This document shows positions 22,475 to 36,102 of a stretch of DNA of 36,102 nucleotides, one piece after another. Origin of the DNA: a virus; the IMG/VR virus record IMGVR_UViG_3300032291_002057, positions 78,305 to 114,406 of that record; one strand, written 5' to 3'. Every line of letters starts with the position of its first letter. The stretch's first letter is position 1. The position numbers and the translations under genes were made by a program. The notes beneath the pieces were generated by a model. The model ran no database searches, had not been told where the DNA came from, and saw only the letters and a program-made list of their open reading frames with translations.

Positions 22475-23899
22475 TTACGCCAAAGTATAGCGATCCTTCA
22501 TAACGGTCTTCAACATGATTGCTTCTGGTGAGAAGTCATCCATGTTACCAGAAAGAATACCTTGTGCAACTGCTGGGCTAAATCCTGAGACTAGCGCAAC
22601 ACCTGTCTTGTCAAACTTAACTGGTGCGTTACCGTATGCGGCGTTCAAGTTCCAGAATACGACCTTTGGAAGTTCGTAGCCTGCCGCTTGATACTTACGT
22701 GCGATCATTTCGATAGCACTGTCATCATGCGAAACACCTGCATCAAATTGCATGTCTGAGAAGATTACTAATGTACCTGGCATTTCTGCTTGAGGAACAT
22801 TGTTATCTACCGCAGTCTTAAGGATCAAATCAAACGCTCGGTTCAAGTCGGTGTTAGCAACTTCACCAGTGTTCATTTGGTCAATCTTTTGATTGATGTT
22901 ACCCTTAAGGTTAACCAACTTAGGAGTGTGTGAGAAGGTCAAGAAAGTATCCTTGAACTTACCAGTGTTCTTGTCTGCAAAATACAATCCCAATGAGATT
23001 GCAACATCCAAACAAGACAAATCACTCTTTGAAGAACGACCACCTGCGGCACAAGTCATAGAACCTGAACTGTCAACCATTGGTAACACGTTACTGTCAC
23101 CGATGAAGTTTGGCAGTGCGTCCCATTGTGCTTGCAATGCATCCAATTCAGTCTTAGTCATAGAACTACGGCTGTACTTGTTGATAGCACCCTTCAACAC
23201 ATCATAAGGGAATACTGCACCAGCGTTAATCTTAACACCAGCTTCACCCTTAACCAACTTGGTTACGTACTCAGCGTAGGTTGTACCATGACGACCAAAA
23301 GCCTTCTTGTAACGTGCATGTGCCACTGAAGGAACATGACTGTAGTTGATGTTGTCCCAGTCGTTAGAACACATTTGTGTTTCAACAACATTGGTCAACG
23401 CAACAAGGCTCTTACGATATTGCTTCGGAGTCATACCAAAGAATTCACGGATTTCACGTGCAACATCGCCCTTACGTGGGGTCCACTTAGCAGCCAATCC
23501 ATTACGGTTACGCAATGCATCGCCCAACATAGTGTATGCTTGTGCCTTAAGATTCTTAGTCTTAAACACAAACAAATCATCGTAACGGCCTAATTCAGGA
23601 ACCTTAACCATCAAACGGCTAGCGTCTTCTGGGTTGGCTACTTCAAGGTAAGACATGATTTGTCGAAACAATTCACGTTCACCGCTACCACCACGTGCAT
23701 CACGTGCCCATTGGGCAATACGCAATGCTAGATCGGAGTTTTCTACGTATGCCGCAGTAAAAGCTGGGATGATGTTCTTACCACGGCTTGCACCGATGTT
23801 ATAGAACAAATCAACACAGGCGTTTGCTGTTGACTTACGTGCCTTCATACCATTTGTAGTACGGGCTTCTTGGTTCATTACTGCTTCTGCGAATTGCAT
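22475..23899 (-). CDS. Ro60/TROVE-like vWA protein, DUF2828 family (474 aa)
   Basis: Residues about 1-265 are helical repeats typical of TROVE/DUF2828 modules; ALRIAQWARDARGGSGERELFRQIMSYL and PELGRYDDLFVF are family phrases. A von Willebrand A domain follows: MIDAS D276-S278-S280 (MVDSSGSM), T350 and D382 (SDMQFD). The end KYQAAGYELPKVVFWNLNAAYGNAPVKFDKTGVALVSGFSPAV is the strongest match to DUF2828 proteins. Ro60 rings bind misfolded RNA and Y RNAs; the same is inferred here. Start MQFAEAV at 23899 follows GGAGAAC; a longer frame from 23914 is unlikely. A structured leader precedes it. Confidence 0.85.
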   Translation of the reverse strand: MQFAEAVMNQEARTTNGMKARKSTANACVDLFYNIGASRGKNIIPAFTAAYVENSDLALRIAQWARDARGGSGERELFRQIMSYLEVANPEDASRLMVKVPELGRYDDLFVFKTKNLKAQAYTMLGDALRNRNGLAAKWTPRKGDVAREIREFFGMTPKQYRKSLVALTNVVETQMCSNDWDNINYSHVPSVAHARYKKAFGRHGTTYAEYVTKLVKGEAGVKINAGAVFPYDVLKGAINKYSRSSMTKTELDALQAQWDALPNFIGDSNVLPMVDSSGSMTCAAGGRSSKSDLSCLDVAISLGLYFADKNTGKFKDTFLTFSHTPKLVNLKGNINQKIDQMNTGEVANTDLNRAFDLILKTAVDNNVPQAEMPGTLVIFSDMQFDAGVSHDDSAIEMIARKYQAAGYELPKVVFWNLNAAYGNAPVKFDKTGVALVSGFSPAVAQGILSGNMDDFSPEAIMLKTVMKDRYTLA

Positions 23900-24163
23900 A
23901 CGTTCTCCTTTCATTTGTATTGCAACAGGATGCGCTTTTTTACTATTATGAAAAGTATTAAAGTTGCTGAAAGCATCCTAAAAATATAACAGGTTAGCTG
24001 TTGACTGCGTTTTTAGACAGGACCGTCACGCCTGCTTTGTTAGTCTTGCTTCAATAGTGCCCTTCAACGATTCACAGATTTTACTCTGTTTCACTCCAGT
24101 CACCTACCACAGTGTCTAACAGTCCATAGTTAATGTATGATGCTGTATCTAACCTAAAGAATG
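23900..24163 (-). ncRNA. Structured leader / candidate Y-like RNA upstream of the Ro60-like gene
   Basis: About 265 nt with no gene lies between a -10 box at 24164 and the ribosome site. On the minus strand, AGGTTAG near the start pairs with CTAACCT near 24000, closing about 155 nt. Inside are a TGTTAG/CTAACA stem and an ACAGA/TCTGT hairpin. A second hairpin, 11 bp with one bulge (AGGATGCTTT...AAAGCGCATCCT), sits at about 23928-23978, just before the ribosome site. It could be a processed RNA, a riboregulatory leader, or both. Confidence 0.5.
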
Positions 24164-26481: not shown

Positions 26482-27288
26482 ATGCATATATCTCACAAAA
26501 GTATTAATTGGCTATTCATATTTCAGATAGTTACCCACCTATCTGTTATTCCTATGCTCATTTACGGTGAACTACATCACTATCTAATAGCCTGGTTAGT
26601 TTTCTTTTTTACCGGATCTATTGGAATGAGTGGAACTTTTCATAGACTATTAAGCCATCGTAGCTATTTAGCACCTAAATGGTGGGAATATTTTGGAACT
26701 ACCTGCGGCACACTAGGCGGTACAGGATCTAGTATAGGATGGTGTGCTGTACATCGTGAACATCATAGATTTACTGATACAGAACGTGATCCACATAGTC
26801 CAAGTTTTCAACCTTGGTGGAAAATTCAATTTCTTAGTATGTTTCATGTGCCGCATGTACGATATGTACCTGATTTACTACGTAGTAAATTTCATGTTAA
26901 TATGCACAAGTACTACTGGTATATACATGCAATATATGCTGTAATATTATATTTGATTGATCCTTTTGCTTTAGTATATGCTTGGCTTGTTCCTAGCTTT
27001 ATATTATGGCATGCAGGAAGTGCTATCAATACATTAAGCCATACATTAGGCTGGCAAGATCATCCATCTAAGGACACTAGCACCAATCATTGGTTAACCG
27101 GCATCTTTATGTGGGGTGAAGGCTGGCATAATAACCATCATCATAGTCCAATGAATTGGAAGTTTGGTGAGAAATGGTGGCAGATTGATGTTACTGCATA
27201 TGTTATTAGATTACTTGGGTTCAAAGGAACGGCTTCCCTCAAAACGGTTCCAGTAAGTAAATCCGGGAAAGTCAGTGGGGATATCTAA
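26482..27288 (+). CDS. Diiron fatty-acyl desaturase (268 aa)
   Basis: All boxes are canonical for acyl-CoA/acyl-lipid delta-9-type desaturases: H54-RLLS-H59 with FHRLLSHRSYLAP, H91-RE-HH95 with AVHREHHRFTDTERDPHSP, and H216-NN-HH220 in GEGWHNNHH, plus NTLSHTLGWQ before box three. Four hydrophobic segments at about 9-50, 75-90, 150-172 and 175-190. It would add a double bond to a fatty acyl chain in the membrane. Its end overlaps the convergent gene by 78 bases. Divergent from the hydroxylase gene. Confidence 0.9.
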   Translation: MHISHKSINWLFIFQIVTHLSVIPMLIYGELHHYLIAWLVFFFTGSIGMSGTFHRLLSHRSYLAPKWWEYFGTTCGTLGGTGSSIGWCAVHREHHRFTDTERDPHSPSFQPWWKIQFLSMFHVPHVRYVPDLLRSKFHVNMHKYYWYIHAIYAVILYLIDPFALVYAWLVPSFILWHAGSAINTLSHTLGWQDHPSKDTSTNHWLTGIFMWGEGWHNNHHHSPMNWKFGEKWWQIDVTAYVIRLLGFKGTASLKTVPVSKSGKVSGDI

Positions 27289-33729: not shown

Positions 33730-33737
33730 CATAAATA
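33730..33737 (+). promoter_or_regulatory. Late-type promoter (CATAAATA), leaderless
   Basis: CATAAATA then TGATT and an in-frame ATG at 33743, matching the octamer-N5-ATG layout of other genes in the window. Confidence 0.65.
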
Positions 33738-33742
33738 TGATT

Positions 33743-34507
33743 ATGAAATTAAAATACATTGATAGCGTAACCATAAAACTTGTTGTAGCCTTTATTATAA
33801 CACTTATTGCCATACCTTATTGGTTTTATTCCGGCGGTACCTTGTTAGGATTTATATTAGTAAGAATAATTGCAAATCAAATACAAGCTACAGGTACAAT
33901 CGGATACCACAGATGGTTATGTCATAACAGTTTTAAACCTAATGTATTTGGAAAATACTTTATGTTATTTGGAATAATAACAAGTGGGATAGGAAGACCT
34001 TTCCATTATGTAATTAGTCACATGTTACACCATCGTCATACTGATACTGAACTTGATCCGCAGTCTCCTAAATACTTAACCTTCTGGGAATTATTCTGGG
34101 GAAGATTACGAATCAACTCCGGCATTCCTTTACCAAAACATTTTATGCGAAATAAAGAAGCAATGTTTGTTAACACATACTACTGGCATCTATATTTTAC
34201 ATTCAATATAATTTTAGCAATAATTGATTTACCTACTGCATTGATCTTTTGCCCTATAACATTAGTTCAGGCTTGGATGGGTGCAACAGTGTTAAACTAT
34301 AACGGTCATGCAGGTAATAAAAATAAAGATGAAATACAACCAACTAATCTACCTACATGGATAAATATACTTTCATGGTCCGGTGAGAATCTACACAAAA
34401 ATCATCACGAAAATCCAAGTTCTTATCACTTTGACGGCCATGGACGTAAAGATATTATGCGCTGGTATGTCGAAGGTTTGTTAATGTCTAAGAAACAAAA
34501 TGTCTAA
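33743..34507 (+). CDS. Diiron fatty-acyl desaturase (254 aa)
   Basis: Boxes H56-RWLC-H61 (YHRWLCHNSFKPN), H93-ML-HH97 (SHMLHHRHTDTELDPQSP) and HKNHH near residue 220 (GENLHKNHHENPSSYHFDGHGRKDIMRWYVEG) are complete. Hydrophobic segments lie at about 9-42 and 148-178. Start at 33743 is chosen because the CATAAATA octamer lies 5 nt upstream; 33737 would add two residues. It shares GTxGYHRW and ELDPxSPKY phrases with the other desaturases, showing one family with diverged members. Confidence 0.9.
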   Translation: MKLKYIDSVTIKLVVAFIITLIAIPYWFYSGGTLLGFILVRIIANQIQATGTIGYHRWLCHNSFKPNVFGKYFMLFGIITSGIGRPFHYVISHMLHHRHTDTELDPQSPKYLTFWELFWGRLRINSGIPLPKHFMRNKEAMFVNTYYWHLYFTFNIILAIIDLPTALIFCPITLVQAWMGATVLNYNGHAGNKNKDEIQPTNLPTWINILSWSGENLHKNHHENPSSYHFDGHGRKDIMRWYVEGLLMSKKQNV

Positions 34508-34700
34508 CGAAAATAATTACATGTCATTGTACGAATTGCTTAACAAAGAATCGTATGTAAAAACAAGTAGTTGGTGTTTACCTAGTGATTTTGTAGCCGA
34601 TGAATTACTCATGCACAGAATATTTGTCAATGATAAACCTGTAATTGTAAAAGAAAAACCTTTTATACTTGCAGGTCCTGAATTCAACACCTTTAAATGA
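34500..34700 (+). CDS. Possible small hypothetical protein (66 aa)
   Basis: The ATG overlaps the desaturase end by 8 bases with no clear ribosome site. MSNENNYMSLYELLNKESYVKTSSWCLPSDFVADELLMHRIFVNDKPVIVKEKPFILAGPEFNTFK looks like a real soluble protein with a compact middle but matches no family known to me. It ends 2 bases before the tRNA-Trp CCA end on the other strand. Confidence 0.5.
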   Translation: MSNENNYMSLYELLNKESYVKTSSWCLPSDFVADELLMHRIFVNDKPVIVKEKPFILAGPEFNTFK

Positions 34701-34702
34701 TT

Positions 34703-34775
34703 GGCGTCCCGGGAGGGATTTGAACCCCCACCAACGGTTTTGGAGACCGACATGCTGCCGTTACACTACCGAGAC
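34703..34775 (-). tRNA. tRNA-Trp (CCA)
   Basis: Acceptor GTCTCGG/CCGGGAC, anticodon loop CTCCAAA (CCA), T-loop TTCAAAT, G73 and encoded CCA, as in bacterial tryptophan tRNAs. Confidence 0.9.
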
Positions 34776-35003
34776 ATATTGAATTTGTAAGTAGTGCTAC
34801 CATCGTTATTAGCACCATTCACCCGTGTAATTAAGCCGGCCGGGACTCGGTACGTTACTTGGGATTCATCCAGCTGATACGCCGTCATGTATGCTGGTCC
34901 CACTCAAGCGACCAGCCGGGCATCGAACCCGCAACCTTCTACTATACAGTACCTTCGAAGAATACTGGATAGCGTGACTTCACTTGCTAACACTTACAAA
35001 ACT
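34776..35003 (-). ncRNA. Structured RNA with tRNA-like T-arm, unidentified
   Basis: No gene and no normal tRNA is seen. On the minus strand it holds a TAGC/GCTA hairpin, a stem with loop CTTCGAA, a T-arm-like GGGTTCGATGCCC at about 34915-34930, a perfect GCTGGTC/GACCAGC pair (34910-34916 with 34893-34899), and a GTGCTA/TAGCAC hairpin (34810-34815 with 34794-34799). GTAAGT/ACTTAC (34992-34997 with 34787-34792) encloses all of it. It may be a folded RNA about 210 nt long. Confidence 0.5.
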
Positions 35004-35091
35004 TGGTGGGTGTTGATGGTAACGCTCCACGAACCCGACTTCCCATCTCTTAAGGTAACGGTTTTACAGACCGCCGACAGGGGCAACACCC
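35004..35091 (-). tRNA. Aberrant tRNA-Tyr-like (GTA)
   Basis: Acceptor GGGTGTT/AACACCC with encoded ACCA and an anticodon arm GCGGT-CTGTAAA-ACCGT (anticodon GTA)) fit tyrosine tRNA, and total length (88 nt) is normal for this class. But only 10 nt lie between acceptor and anticodon stem (no room for a D-arm), and the T-arm is not canonical: GGGTTCG is followed by TGGAGCGTTACCATC. Confidence 0.55.
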
Positions 35092-35104
35092 AAATTCTTT
35101 TTAC

Positions 35105-35181
35105 TATATAGAAACATACTTGATATAGGAGATTACTCTCTCACGGATGAACCCGAATTTAGTCAAATATGTTTTTATATA
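35105..35181 (-). repeat. Hairpin-bounded spacer element A between tRNAs
   Basis: TATATAGAAACATA (35105-35118) pairs with TATGTTTTTATATA (35168-35181), one mismatch. Inside are CGGGTTCATCCG and a GAGA-GTAA-TCTC hairpin with a GNRA loop. It fills the gap between the Tyr-like and Ile tRNAs. Confidence 0.65.
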
Positions 35182-35185
35182 ATGA

Positions 35186-35259
35186 AATAGTGAACAGGAT
35201 TTGCACCTGTGCCCACAGCCAACATCAGCGACTGCACTCTCCTACTAAGCTATCACCAT
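35186..35259 (-). tRNA. tRNA-Ile (GAT)-like, no encoded CCA
   Basis: Acceptor ATGGTGA/TCACTAT, D-arm GCTTAGTAGGAGAGT, an anticodon arm with loop CTGATGT (GAT), and T-arm ACAGG-TGCAAAT-CCTGT. The 3' end reads U73 then UCA instead of CCA, and the T-loop starts TG instead of TT. It may be a degraded or specially matured tRNA. Confidence 0.65.
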
Positions 35260-35353
35260 ATAGAAACACACTACCAGTCCCCGGGATTCGAACCCACTTC
35301 TCTTGTAGTTTACCACGACTTTTACGGTCGGGCAAGTAATGTGTTTTTATATG
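35257..35353 (-). repeat. Hairpin-bounded tRNA-like spacer element C
   Basis: CATATAGAAACACACTA (35257-35273) pairs with TAATGTGTTTTTATATG (35337-35353), two mismatches or wobbles. The interior, on the minus strand, has a CGAC-CGTAAAA-GTCG hairpin and a canonical T-arm-like GGG-TTCGAAT-CCC, but no D-arm. It lies exactly between tRNA-Lys and tRNA-Ile and overlaps their ends by a few bases. Confidence 0.65.
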
Positions 35354-35425
35354 GTAGAGGCACAGAGAATCGAACTCTGATTAATAGGTTAAAAGCCTAC
35401 TACTTTACCGTTAAGTTATACCTCC
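35352..35425 (-). tRNA. tRNA-Lys (TTT)
   Basis: Acceptor GGAGGTA/TGCCTCT, anticodon loop CTTTTAA (TTT), T-loop TTCGATT, encoded ACCA. G1-U72 at the acceptor end. Confidence 0.9.
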
Positions 35426-35428
35426 ATA

Positions 35429-35503
35429 TGGTCCCTTCGCACAGATTTGAACTGTGACCTCTCGGATTAAGAGTCCGGTACGCTACCATTACGCAACGAA
35501 GGG
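35429..35503 (-). tRNA. tRNA-Lys (CTT)
   Basis: Acceptor CCCTTCG/CGAAGGG, anticodon loop CTCTTAA (CTT), T-loop TTCAAAT, A73 and encoded CCA. The first anticodon-stem pair is a C-A mismatch. Confidence 0.85.
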
Positions 35504-35527
35504 TTGGTCGTATTATTTTGATTTTAC

Positions 35528-35565
35528 GTGCCAACCCTAAACCATACGGAAGTTTAGAGTGACAC
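35528..35565 (-). terminator. Long stem-loop after the 41-aa gene
   Basis: On the minus strand GTGTCACTCTAAAC pairs with GTTTAGGGTTGGCAC through 14 pairs (several G-U) and one bulge, with a 9-nt loop. There is no clear T-run, so it may be a processing or stability stem between the gene and tRNA-Lys. Confidence 0.55.
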
Positions 35566-35586
35566 TAGAGTTTACCTCGTTTCATA

Positions 35587-35712
35587 TCATTCTCCTTTAA
35601 TTACTTTCTTTTGTGCTTGTCGTTCTGATTTCCAGAACACTCTCTTCCAATCTCTAAGGTGTTTCCACCATTGAGGACTACGTGTTAGAATACCTTGTTG
35701 CTTATGTGCCAC
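35587..35712 (-). CDS. 41-aa basic microprotein (GTG start)
   Basis: A GTG at 35712 follows AAAGGAGAAC at good distance and opens a 41-residue frame: AHKQQGILTRSPQWWKHLRD, then WKRVFWKSERQAQKK. The S-P-x-W-W-K-H-L-R phrase followed by K-R-x-F-W-K-x-x-R resembles small basic proteins that recur in large phages near tRNA clusters. The longer frame upstream runs through tRNA-Cys and is not used. Function unknown. A six-codon frame MKRGKL with its own AAAGGAG site follows. Confidence 0.75.
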   Translation of the reverse strand: MAHKQQGILTRSPQWWKHLRDWKRVFWKSERQAQKKVIKGE

Positions 35713-35732
35713 AACGTTCTCCTTTAAAAACT

Positions 35733-35810
35733 TGGAGCACAGGGTGAGATTTGAACTCACGGTTTTACGGATTTGCAATCCGTTGCATTGGGCCGCTCTG
35801 CCACCTGTGC
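35733..35810 (-). tRNA. tRNA-Cys (GCA)
   Basis: Acceptor GCACAGG/CCTGTGC, anticodon loop TTGCAAA (GCA), T-loop TTCAAAT, U73 and encoded CCA. Confidence 0.9.
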
Positions 35811-36080
35811 ATAAAGCATATAGAAACACACTATTGTTACCTTGCCCTAACCCTTGTGTTAGAGAAACTAAGGATAGTATGCTTCTATATGCTCTGCATC
35901 CCTCGGCGGTAATTATAGTACATCAGACCTTTGGAGTCATCACACATACCTTCCACCCGCTTCCCGACAGGGACCGTTATCGCATTGCTAGCGGCCTTTC
36001 GGTTTAAAGACTACCACCCGTAGCTGTCACACTACTTCTCATCGTGCGGGTCACACTATCCGGAGACACCCGGAACGTTC
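35811..36080 (-). ncRNA. Structured non-coding region including spacer element H
   Basis: No gene is seen. AGCATATAGAAACACACTAT (35815-35834) pairs with ATAGTATGCTTCTATATGCT (35874-35893), enclosing a CTAAC/GTTAG hairpin. The next 185 nt are much more GC-rich than the surrounding DNA, with TCCGG/CCGGA, ACCCG/CGGGT with a nested GTAG/CTAC, TCCC-TGTC-GGGA and CGC/GCG hairpins. This looks like a folded RNA; no known family is recognised. Confidence 0.5.
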
Positions 36081-36102
36081 TGGCAGAGAGTGTGGGATTC
36101 GA
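36081..36102 (-). tRNA. Partial tRNA 3' end at window edge
   Basis: On the minus strand the window begins in a T-loop (TCGAATCCCAC), then ACTCTCT, G73 and CCA. The rest, including the anticodon, lies outside the window. Confidence 0.7.

What the first reader, a model, noticed from the sequence alone, without database searches (positions are those of the whole stretch)
35105..35893. Hairpin-bounded spacers between tRNAs with a shared motif
Three elements begin with [C/T]ATATAGAAACA and end in its near-complement, each closing a long stem around 45-65 nt. Two share an identical 17-nt opening. They fill the gaps between tRNA genes exactly, and one holds a T-arm-like TTCGAAT hairpin and an anticodon-like loop but no D-arm. 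They might direct tRNA processing, be decoy tRNA-like RNAs, or be a new class of small RNA. I know of no named family for them.
Basis: partly seen in the sequence, partly recalled or inferred. Interest (0 to 1): 0.8.

Follow-up and report, generated by a model that had tools for sequence, protein, structure and literature searches.

The report
Stem-capped variable RNAs in phage arrays
Between its tRNA genes this virus encodes three members of a large, apparently undescribed family of small folded RNAs that share one conserved end-to-end stem but carry interchangeable, highly variable contents, which suggests a phage-specific RNA toolkit.

Summary
The tRNAs are on the minus strand, and so are three RNAs: A 35104-35182, B 35256-35354, C 35816-35892. 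Each is closed by a 17-bp terminal helix, usually with a mismatch at position 8. A stem search found 237 distinct relatives (282 elements, 133 loci), all in viral tRNA arrays. An exact scan of 84,980 prokaryote genomes found none, and Rfam has no match.

The outer helix is 99% paired across 46 sequences with 11 compensatory pairs (0/500 shuffles). G-U outnumbers A-C 262 to 11, so the tRNA-sense strand is the RNA. B's content recurs in 45 stretches and A's in 24, behind different but still complementary arms. Of elements abutting a tRNA, 117/121 start exactly at its CCA; 79% of those tRNAs are Lys-UUU, Gln-UUG or Glu-UUC (12% expected). The 66 behind Lys-UUU carry 56 content types.

Best explanation: a conserved stem "handle" on a hypervariable RNA payload, released by tRNA processing, probably acting on host or defence RNA factors. 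A Y-RNA-like link to the phage's own Ro60-fold protein (22475-23914) is plausible, but Ro60 was not found in about half of the testable relatives. Function is inferred, not shown.

The parts
35104..35182 (-). Element A (79 nt): 5' arm 35166-35182, 3' arm 35104-35120, A.C mismatch at 35175/35111, payload with invariant TTTGACTAAAYTCGGGTTCATCCGTGA and a covarying inner hairpin
   Evidence: fold z -3.9; 24 payload relatives in IMG/VR; 7 compensatory pairs in 13 sequences
35256..35354 (-). Element B (99 nt): 5' arm 35338-35354, 3' arm 35256-35272, A.C mismatch at 35347/35263; tRNA-like payload without D-arm
   Evidence: fold z -4.1; 45 payload relatives; 98.1% cells paired, 12 pairs changed on both sides, 0/500 shuffles
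35282..35296 (-). T-arm-like hairpin of B (4 bp, loop TTCGAAT)
   Evidence: 2 of 4 pairs compensatory in 29 sequences
35317..35329 (-). Anticodon-arm-like hairpin of B (3 bp, loop consensus YGYAAAM, no U33)
   Evidence: paired in 29/29 sequences, never varies, so no covariation evidence
35305..35316 (-). Variable-arm-like hairpin of B (GTGG/CTAC)
   Evidence: paired in 29/29 sequences, never varies
35816..35892 (-). Element C (77 nt): fully paired outer helix (G-C at position 8), 5' arm 35876-35892, 3' arm 35816-35832; payload found nowhere else
   Evidence: fold z -8.9; model R1 E 1.4e-9 (one of the model's own sequences); 0 exact payload matches in IMG/VR
35352..35425 (-). tRNA-Lys(UUU) whose encoded CCA is the first three bases of element B
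35186..35259 (-). tRNA-Ile(GAU) whose first four bases overlap the 3' end of element B
35733..35810 (-). tRNA-Cys(GCA), starts 5 nt after element C
22475..23914 (-). Ro60-fold protein gene (phrog_850, DUF2828 + DUF7788): candidate, unproven binder of the stems
   Evidence: model best matched by Ro60 structures

Best explanation
A, B and C belong to a family of phage small structured RNAs built as 'handle plus payload'. SHOWN by sequence: the RNA is on the tRNA strand. Its ends pair in a 17-bp helix (7 bp, then a 1x1 mismatch in 64% of members, then 9 bp). The helix sequence changes by compensatory substitution. The enclosed 30-80 nt payload is a separate module: conserved within a type, very diverse between types, and found behind different arms and different tRNAs. 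INFERRED: the RNA is co-transcribed with the tRNAs and released by their own processing. 3' maturation after CCA would set its 5' end, and RNase P cleavage of the next tRNA its 3' end. The helix then protects the RNA and acts as a protein-binding handle. The payloads, which turn over fast at a slot behind tRNA-Lys(UUU), Gln(UUG) or Glu(UUC), act on host or defence factors, some as tRNA mimics. Rough step likelihoods: RNA family 0.97; release by tRNA processing 0.75; protein-bound handle 0.6; counter-defence or decoy payload 0.4.
For: 98 of the 120 loci found by an arm-only pattern hold an element with a same-strand tRNA within 600 nt. 237 distinct elements near tRNAs; 117 of 121 abutting ones start exactly at CCA, 31 are exact on both sides, 262 G-U against 11 A-C, upstream Lys/Gln/Glu-UUN 96/121 (P 2e-63; one per payload cluster 74/94). 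Outer helix: 46 sequences, 99% paired, 11 pairs with double changes, 0/500 shuffles, slid versions 27-67% paired. B: 29 sequences with very different arms, all complementary. 174 payload clusters, 138 singletons; 66 elements behind Lys-UUU carry 56 payload types; pairs of loci with tRNA-Lys at least 97% identical differ in payload 34 times and agree once. No Rfam match. No exact match in 84,980 prokaryote genomes.
Against: No expression data for any member. Payload function rests on diversity and context only; no target was found. The sequences were de-duplicated before the slot comparison, so 'same payload' is undercounted (45 of 282 elements were removed). Position 8 is paired in about a third of members (G-C, A-U), so the mismatch is not obligatory. 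About half of the elements do not abut a tRNA that ARAGORN recognises.
Confidence: 0.5

Rival explanations
1. Y-RNA-like scaffolds: the terminal stem is the binding site of the phage's own Ro60-fold protein, and the variable payloads tether or gate other RNAs and nucleases, as YrlA and Y RNAs do.
For: The window encodes a Ro60-fold protein: the eleven Foldseek hits with E <= 0.001 are all Ro60/TROVE, VIA Z 17.1 against 10.4 for the best non-Ro. The vertebrate Ro60 site is a 7-bp helix followed by bulges (PMC4726728); here it is 7 bp plus a mismatch. Ro60 gene lies 0.4-11.7 kb from elements in 14 records including an isolated phage. In Listeria phage CKA15, abundant RNAs near the tRNAs and an Rsr-like gene were proposed to be Y RNAs (PMC12282133).
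Against: Ro60 not found (phrog_850 and/or alignment A1) in about 8 records whose elements lie at least 15 kb from the contig ends, one of them 525 kb. Eight other Ro60-bearing isolated phages have no hit to model R1. No match to Rfam Y RNA or yrlA. Several of the 14 records were chosen because they carry Ro60.
Confidence: 0.3
2. Pure processing spacers: the stem is an RNase III or tRNA-maturation signal that separates neighbouring tRNAs, and the interior is filler.
For: Exact abutment to CCA and to the next tRNA; stem length of 17-23 bp suits RNase III (own knowledge). In Cronobacter phage S13, Citrobacter phage Ci1 and others, long stems enclose single tRNAs.
Against: Payloads are near-invariant within a type across phages while arms change, which filler would not be. 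No phage RNase III gene in 20 records (the host could supply it). Elements also occur away from recognised tRNAs.
Confidence: 0.15
3. Mobile DNA cassettes: the arms are terminal inverted repeats or recombination sites (MITE-like or integron-like), selected as DNA.
For: Conserved ends around variable interiors; the same payload occurs at different tRNA sites.
Against: A conserved A.C/C.A/U.U mismatch and strand-specific G-U pairs (262 against 11), and arms that diverge by compensatory changes while the payload stays: these are marks of selection on RNA. No protein-coding space.
Confidence: 0.07
4. Degenerate tRNA genes: B and similar elements are decaying tRNAs with extended acceptor stems.
For: T-arm, anticodon-like and variable-like hairpins in B; 19 of 237 interiors have a T-arm-like hairpin (0.7 expected).
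Against: B is under strong constraint in 29 sequences, with a covarying T-arm and no D-arm. Most payloads are not tRNA-like; only 2 of 237 contain an ARAGORN tRNA.
Confidence: 0.08

Closest known systems
Y RNAs / bacterial YrlA (Ro60-bound)
   Same: About 100 nt; 5' and 3' ends pair into a conserved long stem with an irregularity after about 7 bp; variable interior; tRNA-like module in B; Ro60-fold gene in the same phage region.
   Different: No covariance-model match; mismatch instead of the bulged C plus 3-nt bulge; hundreds of payload types; several element-bearing phages lack a detectable Ro60.
T4 species 1 and 2 RNAs (bands C and D) and the small stable non-tRNA RNAs of T5 (own knowledge)
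   Same: Stable non-tRNA RNAs encoded inside phage tRNA clusters and processed from tRNA precursors; function unknown.
   Different: No shared conserved helix or payload family is known to me; sequences were not compared here.
GOLLD and ROOL RNAs
   Same: Structured RNAs in phage tRNA arrays (PMC12286853); GOLLD lies in the same arrays here (L048, L011).
   Different: Hundreds of nt, ornate, cage-forming; no match to the elements.
tRNA
   Same: B has T-arm, anticodon-like and variable-like arms.
   Different: No D-arm, no U33, outer helix of 17 bp or more instead of a 7-bp acceptor, no Rfam tRNA match.

Membership tests
Y RNA / YrlA | 5' and 3' ends pair to form a long terminal stem | tested here: met
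   99% of cells paired in 46 sequences, covariation beyond 0/500 shuffles
Y RNA / YrlA | Ro60 site: 7-bp helix, single bulged C, 3-nt bulge opposite (vertebrate; PMC4726728) | tested here: inconclusive
   7-bp helix plus 1x1 mismatch in 151 of 237; bulge geometry differs; bacterial and phage sites could not be compared
Y RNA / YrlA | Match to a Y RNA or yrlA covariance model | tested here: not met
   Rfam 15, gathering on the window and E up to 10 on 34680-36102: no Y RNA or yrlA
Y RNA / YrlA | Genome encodes a Ro60 protein | tested here: inconclusive
   Yes in the window's virus and 13 other records; not found in about 8 records with elements well inside the contig
Y RNA / YrlA | Physically bound by Ro60 | not testable with these tools
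   needs binding or CLIP data
tRNA | Canonical cloverleaf with D-arm and 7-bp acceptor; tRNA covariance model | tested here: not met
   No RF00005 match for A, B or C; B consensus structure lacks a D-arm
tRNA | U33 in a 7-nt anticodon loop | tested here: not met
   B loop YGYAAAM in 29 sequences
GOLLD / ROOL / other Rfam families | Covariance-model match at gathering score | tested here: not met
   No match over A, B or C
MITE-like or other mobile DNA with terminal repeats | Ends conserved as DNA inverted repeats, without RNA-specific pairing | tested here: not met
   Conserved mismatch, sense-only G-U excess, compensatory arm changes
MITE-like or other mobile DNA with terminal repeats | Target-site duplication or a recognised transposase or integrase | not tested
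   not examined
RNase III processing signal | Cleavage of the terminal helix by RNase III | not testable with these tools
   helix length is suitable; no phage RNase III gene in 20 records

The most novel reading that the evidence does not exclude
A phage-specific, modular RNA effector system: fixed slots behind tRNAs (mostly Lys-UUU, Gln-UUG, Glu-UUC, the U34-modified group that includes the target of PrrC) carry a common stem handle with fast-turnover RNA payloads that counter or mimic host RNA-targeting defences, an RNA counterpart of variable anti-defence gene slots.
Probability: 0.35. Interest if true: 0.95.

Novelty: categorically new. Interest (0 to 1): 0.86.

Why it matters
Phage tRNA arrays are usually read as codon or anti-nuclease supply. 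Here their gaps hold hundreds of distinct folded RNAs with one shared architecture, found in virus contigs and one isolated phage and by an exact pattern in no prokaryote genome. If the payloads act on host factors, this is a large untapped set of natural RNA effectors, with a ready test system (BUCT-ZZ01 on Synechococcus elongatus PCC 7942). If the handle binds Ro60, it would give the widespread phage Ro60 proteins (682 isolated phage records) their missing RNA partners. Either outcome makes an old question testable: what the non-tRNA stable RNAs of phage tRNA clusters do.

Tried and rejected
Known Rfam family: none over A, B or C. Terminator: the 3' arm is not followed by a U run, and stems sit inside tRNA arrays (reading of the sequence). 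Antisense RNA: rejected by G-U against A-C counts. Ro60 as obligatory partner: rejected, since about 8 records with interior elements lack a detectable Ro60; kept as a rival. TROVE Pfam model PF05731: found in only 1 of 25 records, because the phage Ro60 proteins fall under DUF2828/DUF7788. Phage RNase III gene: none in 20 records. One element against the isolated-phage collection by blastn: only chance-level hits. C payload in IMG/VR: no exact match. Host genomes: exact pattern gives 0 in 84,980; this tests only the commonest arm class, so bacterial copies with other arms are not excluded. One search used a structure string out of register with its alignment and is disregarded. Literature: no description of such a family found in ten full-text searches of open-licence PMC papers; subscription papers and preprints were not covered.

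Full report
1. What is there. The window is G000:C1:78305-114406 of a 114,406-base virus record. ARAGORN and Rfam place 16 tRNA genes, all on the minus strand. All three fold as one long terminal stem with significant energy.

2. It is a family. Nothing in the pattern refers to tRNAs, yet 98 of the 120 loci carry an element with a same-strand tRNA within 600 nt. A wider stem search in all loci then fetched gives 282 elements in 133 loci, 237 distinct. The same search on shuffled array sequence gives 0-2 where the real sequence gives 114. An exact pattern scan of 84,980 bacterial and archaeal genomes gives none. Model R1 finds elements in the isolated Synechococcus phage BUCT-ZZ01, in none of eight other Ro60-bearing isolated phages, and near the tRNA region of large virus contigs.

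3. It is RNA, and the tRNA-sense strand. In 237 elements all positions of the 17-bp helix are paired in 94-100% of cases, except position 8. Position 8 is a mismatch in 151 of 237 (A.C 127, T.T 12, C.A 7, C.C 4, T.C 1). G-U pairs outnumber A-C mismatches 262 to 11 over the other positions, the asymmetry expected only if this strand is the RNA. In an alignment of 46 diverse members 99% of cells are paired, 11 of 16 pairs show changes on both sides, 45 such cells against 7 in shuffles, 0/500 shuffles reach it, and sliding the partner drops pairing to 27-67%.

4. Payloads are modules. B's interior recurs in 45 stretches. In 29 aligned sequences the interior is nearly invariant, while the arms range over CCATATAAAAACACATT, CCATATGCAAACACATT, CCAAATTAAAACATACT, GCGTATTAAAGCATA and others, always with complementary partners; 12 pairs change on both sides, 68 cells against 22.6. 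The B core has an anticodon-like hairpin (loop YGYAAAM, no U33), a variable-arm-like hairpin and a T-arm (TTCGAAT) with two compensatory pairs, but no D-arm. The first two hairpins never vary, so covariation neither supports nor opposes them. A's payload recurs in 24 stretches with a covarying inner hairpin. A third payload type shows 13 of 30 pairs with compensatory change. C's payload was found nowhere else. In all there are 174 payload clusters, 138 of them singletons, so sampling is far from complete.

5. Slot. 121 elements abut a tRNA; in 117 the tRNA's CCA is exactly bases 1-3 of the helix, and in 31 the downstream tRNA also starts exactly at the final GG. The upstream tRNA is Lys-UUU 66, Gln-UUG 18 or Glu-UUC 12, together 79% against 12% of the tRNAs in the same loci (P 2e-63; 74 of 94 when counted once per payload cluster). 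The 66 behind Lys-UUU hold 56 payload types. Pairs of loci with tRNA-Lys at least 97% identical differ in payload in 34 cases and agree in 1. Duplicates had been removed beforehand, so agreement is undercounted. The window and locus L094 show it directly: same tRNA-Lys, same arms, different payload.

6. Mechanism. What the sequence shows is a conserved handle and a variable payload released, most simply, by the processing of its tRNA neighbours. What binds the handle is open. The strongest candidate found is the Ro60-fold protein encoded 11 kb away (22475-23914): phrog_850, DUF2828 plus DUF7788. Its model (mean pLDDT 71.5) has only Ro60/TROVE structures among its significant Foldseek hits, including the Ro60 dimer of Thermus phage phiLo, and VIA Z of 17.1 and 15.7 against 10.4 for the best non-Ro structure. 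The vertebrate Ro60 site is a 7-bp helix followed by bulges (PMC4726728), which resembles 7 bp plus a mismatch. In 14 records the Ro60 gene lies 0.4-11.7 kb from an element; several of these were selected for carrying Ro60. But it was not found in about eight records whose elements lie well inside the contig, including a 525-kb one, so it cannot be the sole explanation. A 2025 study of Listeria phage CKA15 reports highly transcribed unannotated regions near the tRNAs next to an Rsr-like gene and suggests Y RNAs (PMC12282133), which shows that RNAs of this kind of location can be abundant.

7. Payload function is inferred only. High turnover at a fixed slot is typical of arms races; the slot sits behind tRNAs of the U34-modified group (own knowledge), one of which, Lys-UUU, is cut by PrrC, and phage tRNAs are known to evade anticodon nucleases (PMC10264068). 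Some payloads are tRNA mimics. No target was identified.

8. Novelty. No Rfam family, no prokaryote copy by exact pattern, and no description found in the open-licence literature that could be searched. It resembles Y RNAs in architecture and T4/T5 small stable RNAs in location (the latter from own knowledge), but fails the covariance-model test for the former, and obligatory Ro60 pairing was not supported. I rate the family categorically new, with the note that proof of Ro60 binding would turn it into a large new variant of Y RNAs.

Noticed in passing
window 34776-35002 (-): A second RNA of about 230 nt between a tRNA-Tyr-like gene missed by ARAGORN and tRNA-Trp: 70-93% identical in about 40 other viral loci, arms TTTGTAAGT.../...ACTTACAAA, T-arm motif inside; a homologue has no Rfam family apart from an adjacent tRNA.
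   Followed up: partly
window 35893-36102 (-), cut by the window end: A conserved stretch of at least 210 nt with homologues in several loci (75-95% identity); a homologue in L080 has weak sub-threshold permuted-tmRNA and tRNA-Sec scores.
   Followed up: partly
L028, L066, L067, L077, L084, L086, L089, L096 and others: Many further long-terminal-stem elements with other arms, e.g. TACCATTTGTTTTGCTGATGTA...TGCGTCAGCAAAACAAATGGTA (127 nt) and CTATATGTAAACACATTAGGG...CCCTAATGTATTTTCATATAG (232 nt); some enclose an intact tRNA, such as the GATCCCGTATTGGTCT class in L086.
   Followed up: no
L204:3835-3929, L209:10560-10656, L209:11882-11974, L212:12792-12887: In isolated phages (Cronobacter S13, Citrobacter Ci1, Sinorhizobium phiN3) single tRNAs are enclosed by 17-21 bp flanking stems.
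   Followed up: no
L208:22553-22696, 22977-23085, 23846-23935: Salmonella phage Mushroom (Felixounavirus): long-stem elements of 90-144 nt in the tRNA array beside its Ro60-type gene; the annotation and ARAGORN differ on the strand of the tRNAs.
   Followed up: no
L277:64-188 and 306-476: Listeria phage List-36: two long-stem repeats with arms up to 59 nt just upstream of the tRNA array and the Ro60-type gene; possibly related to the abundant RNAs reported for CKA15.
   Followed up: no
L048:2633-3098, L011:1864-2326, L048:812-1112: GOLLD RNA in two of the same arrays, and a permuted tmRNA.
   Followed up: no
window 26482-27288 (+) and 33737-34507 (+): A fatty acid desaturase gene (Pfam) and a second ORF that looks desaturase-like by its histidine motifs (my reading; no PHROG match), unusual in a phage.
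   Followed up: no
phage collection: DUF2828/phrog_850 Ro60-type proteins occur in 682 isolated phage records, often beside tRNA arrays, mostly annotated as hypothetical.
   Followed up: partly
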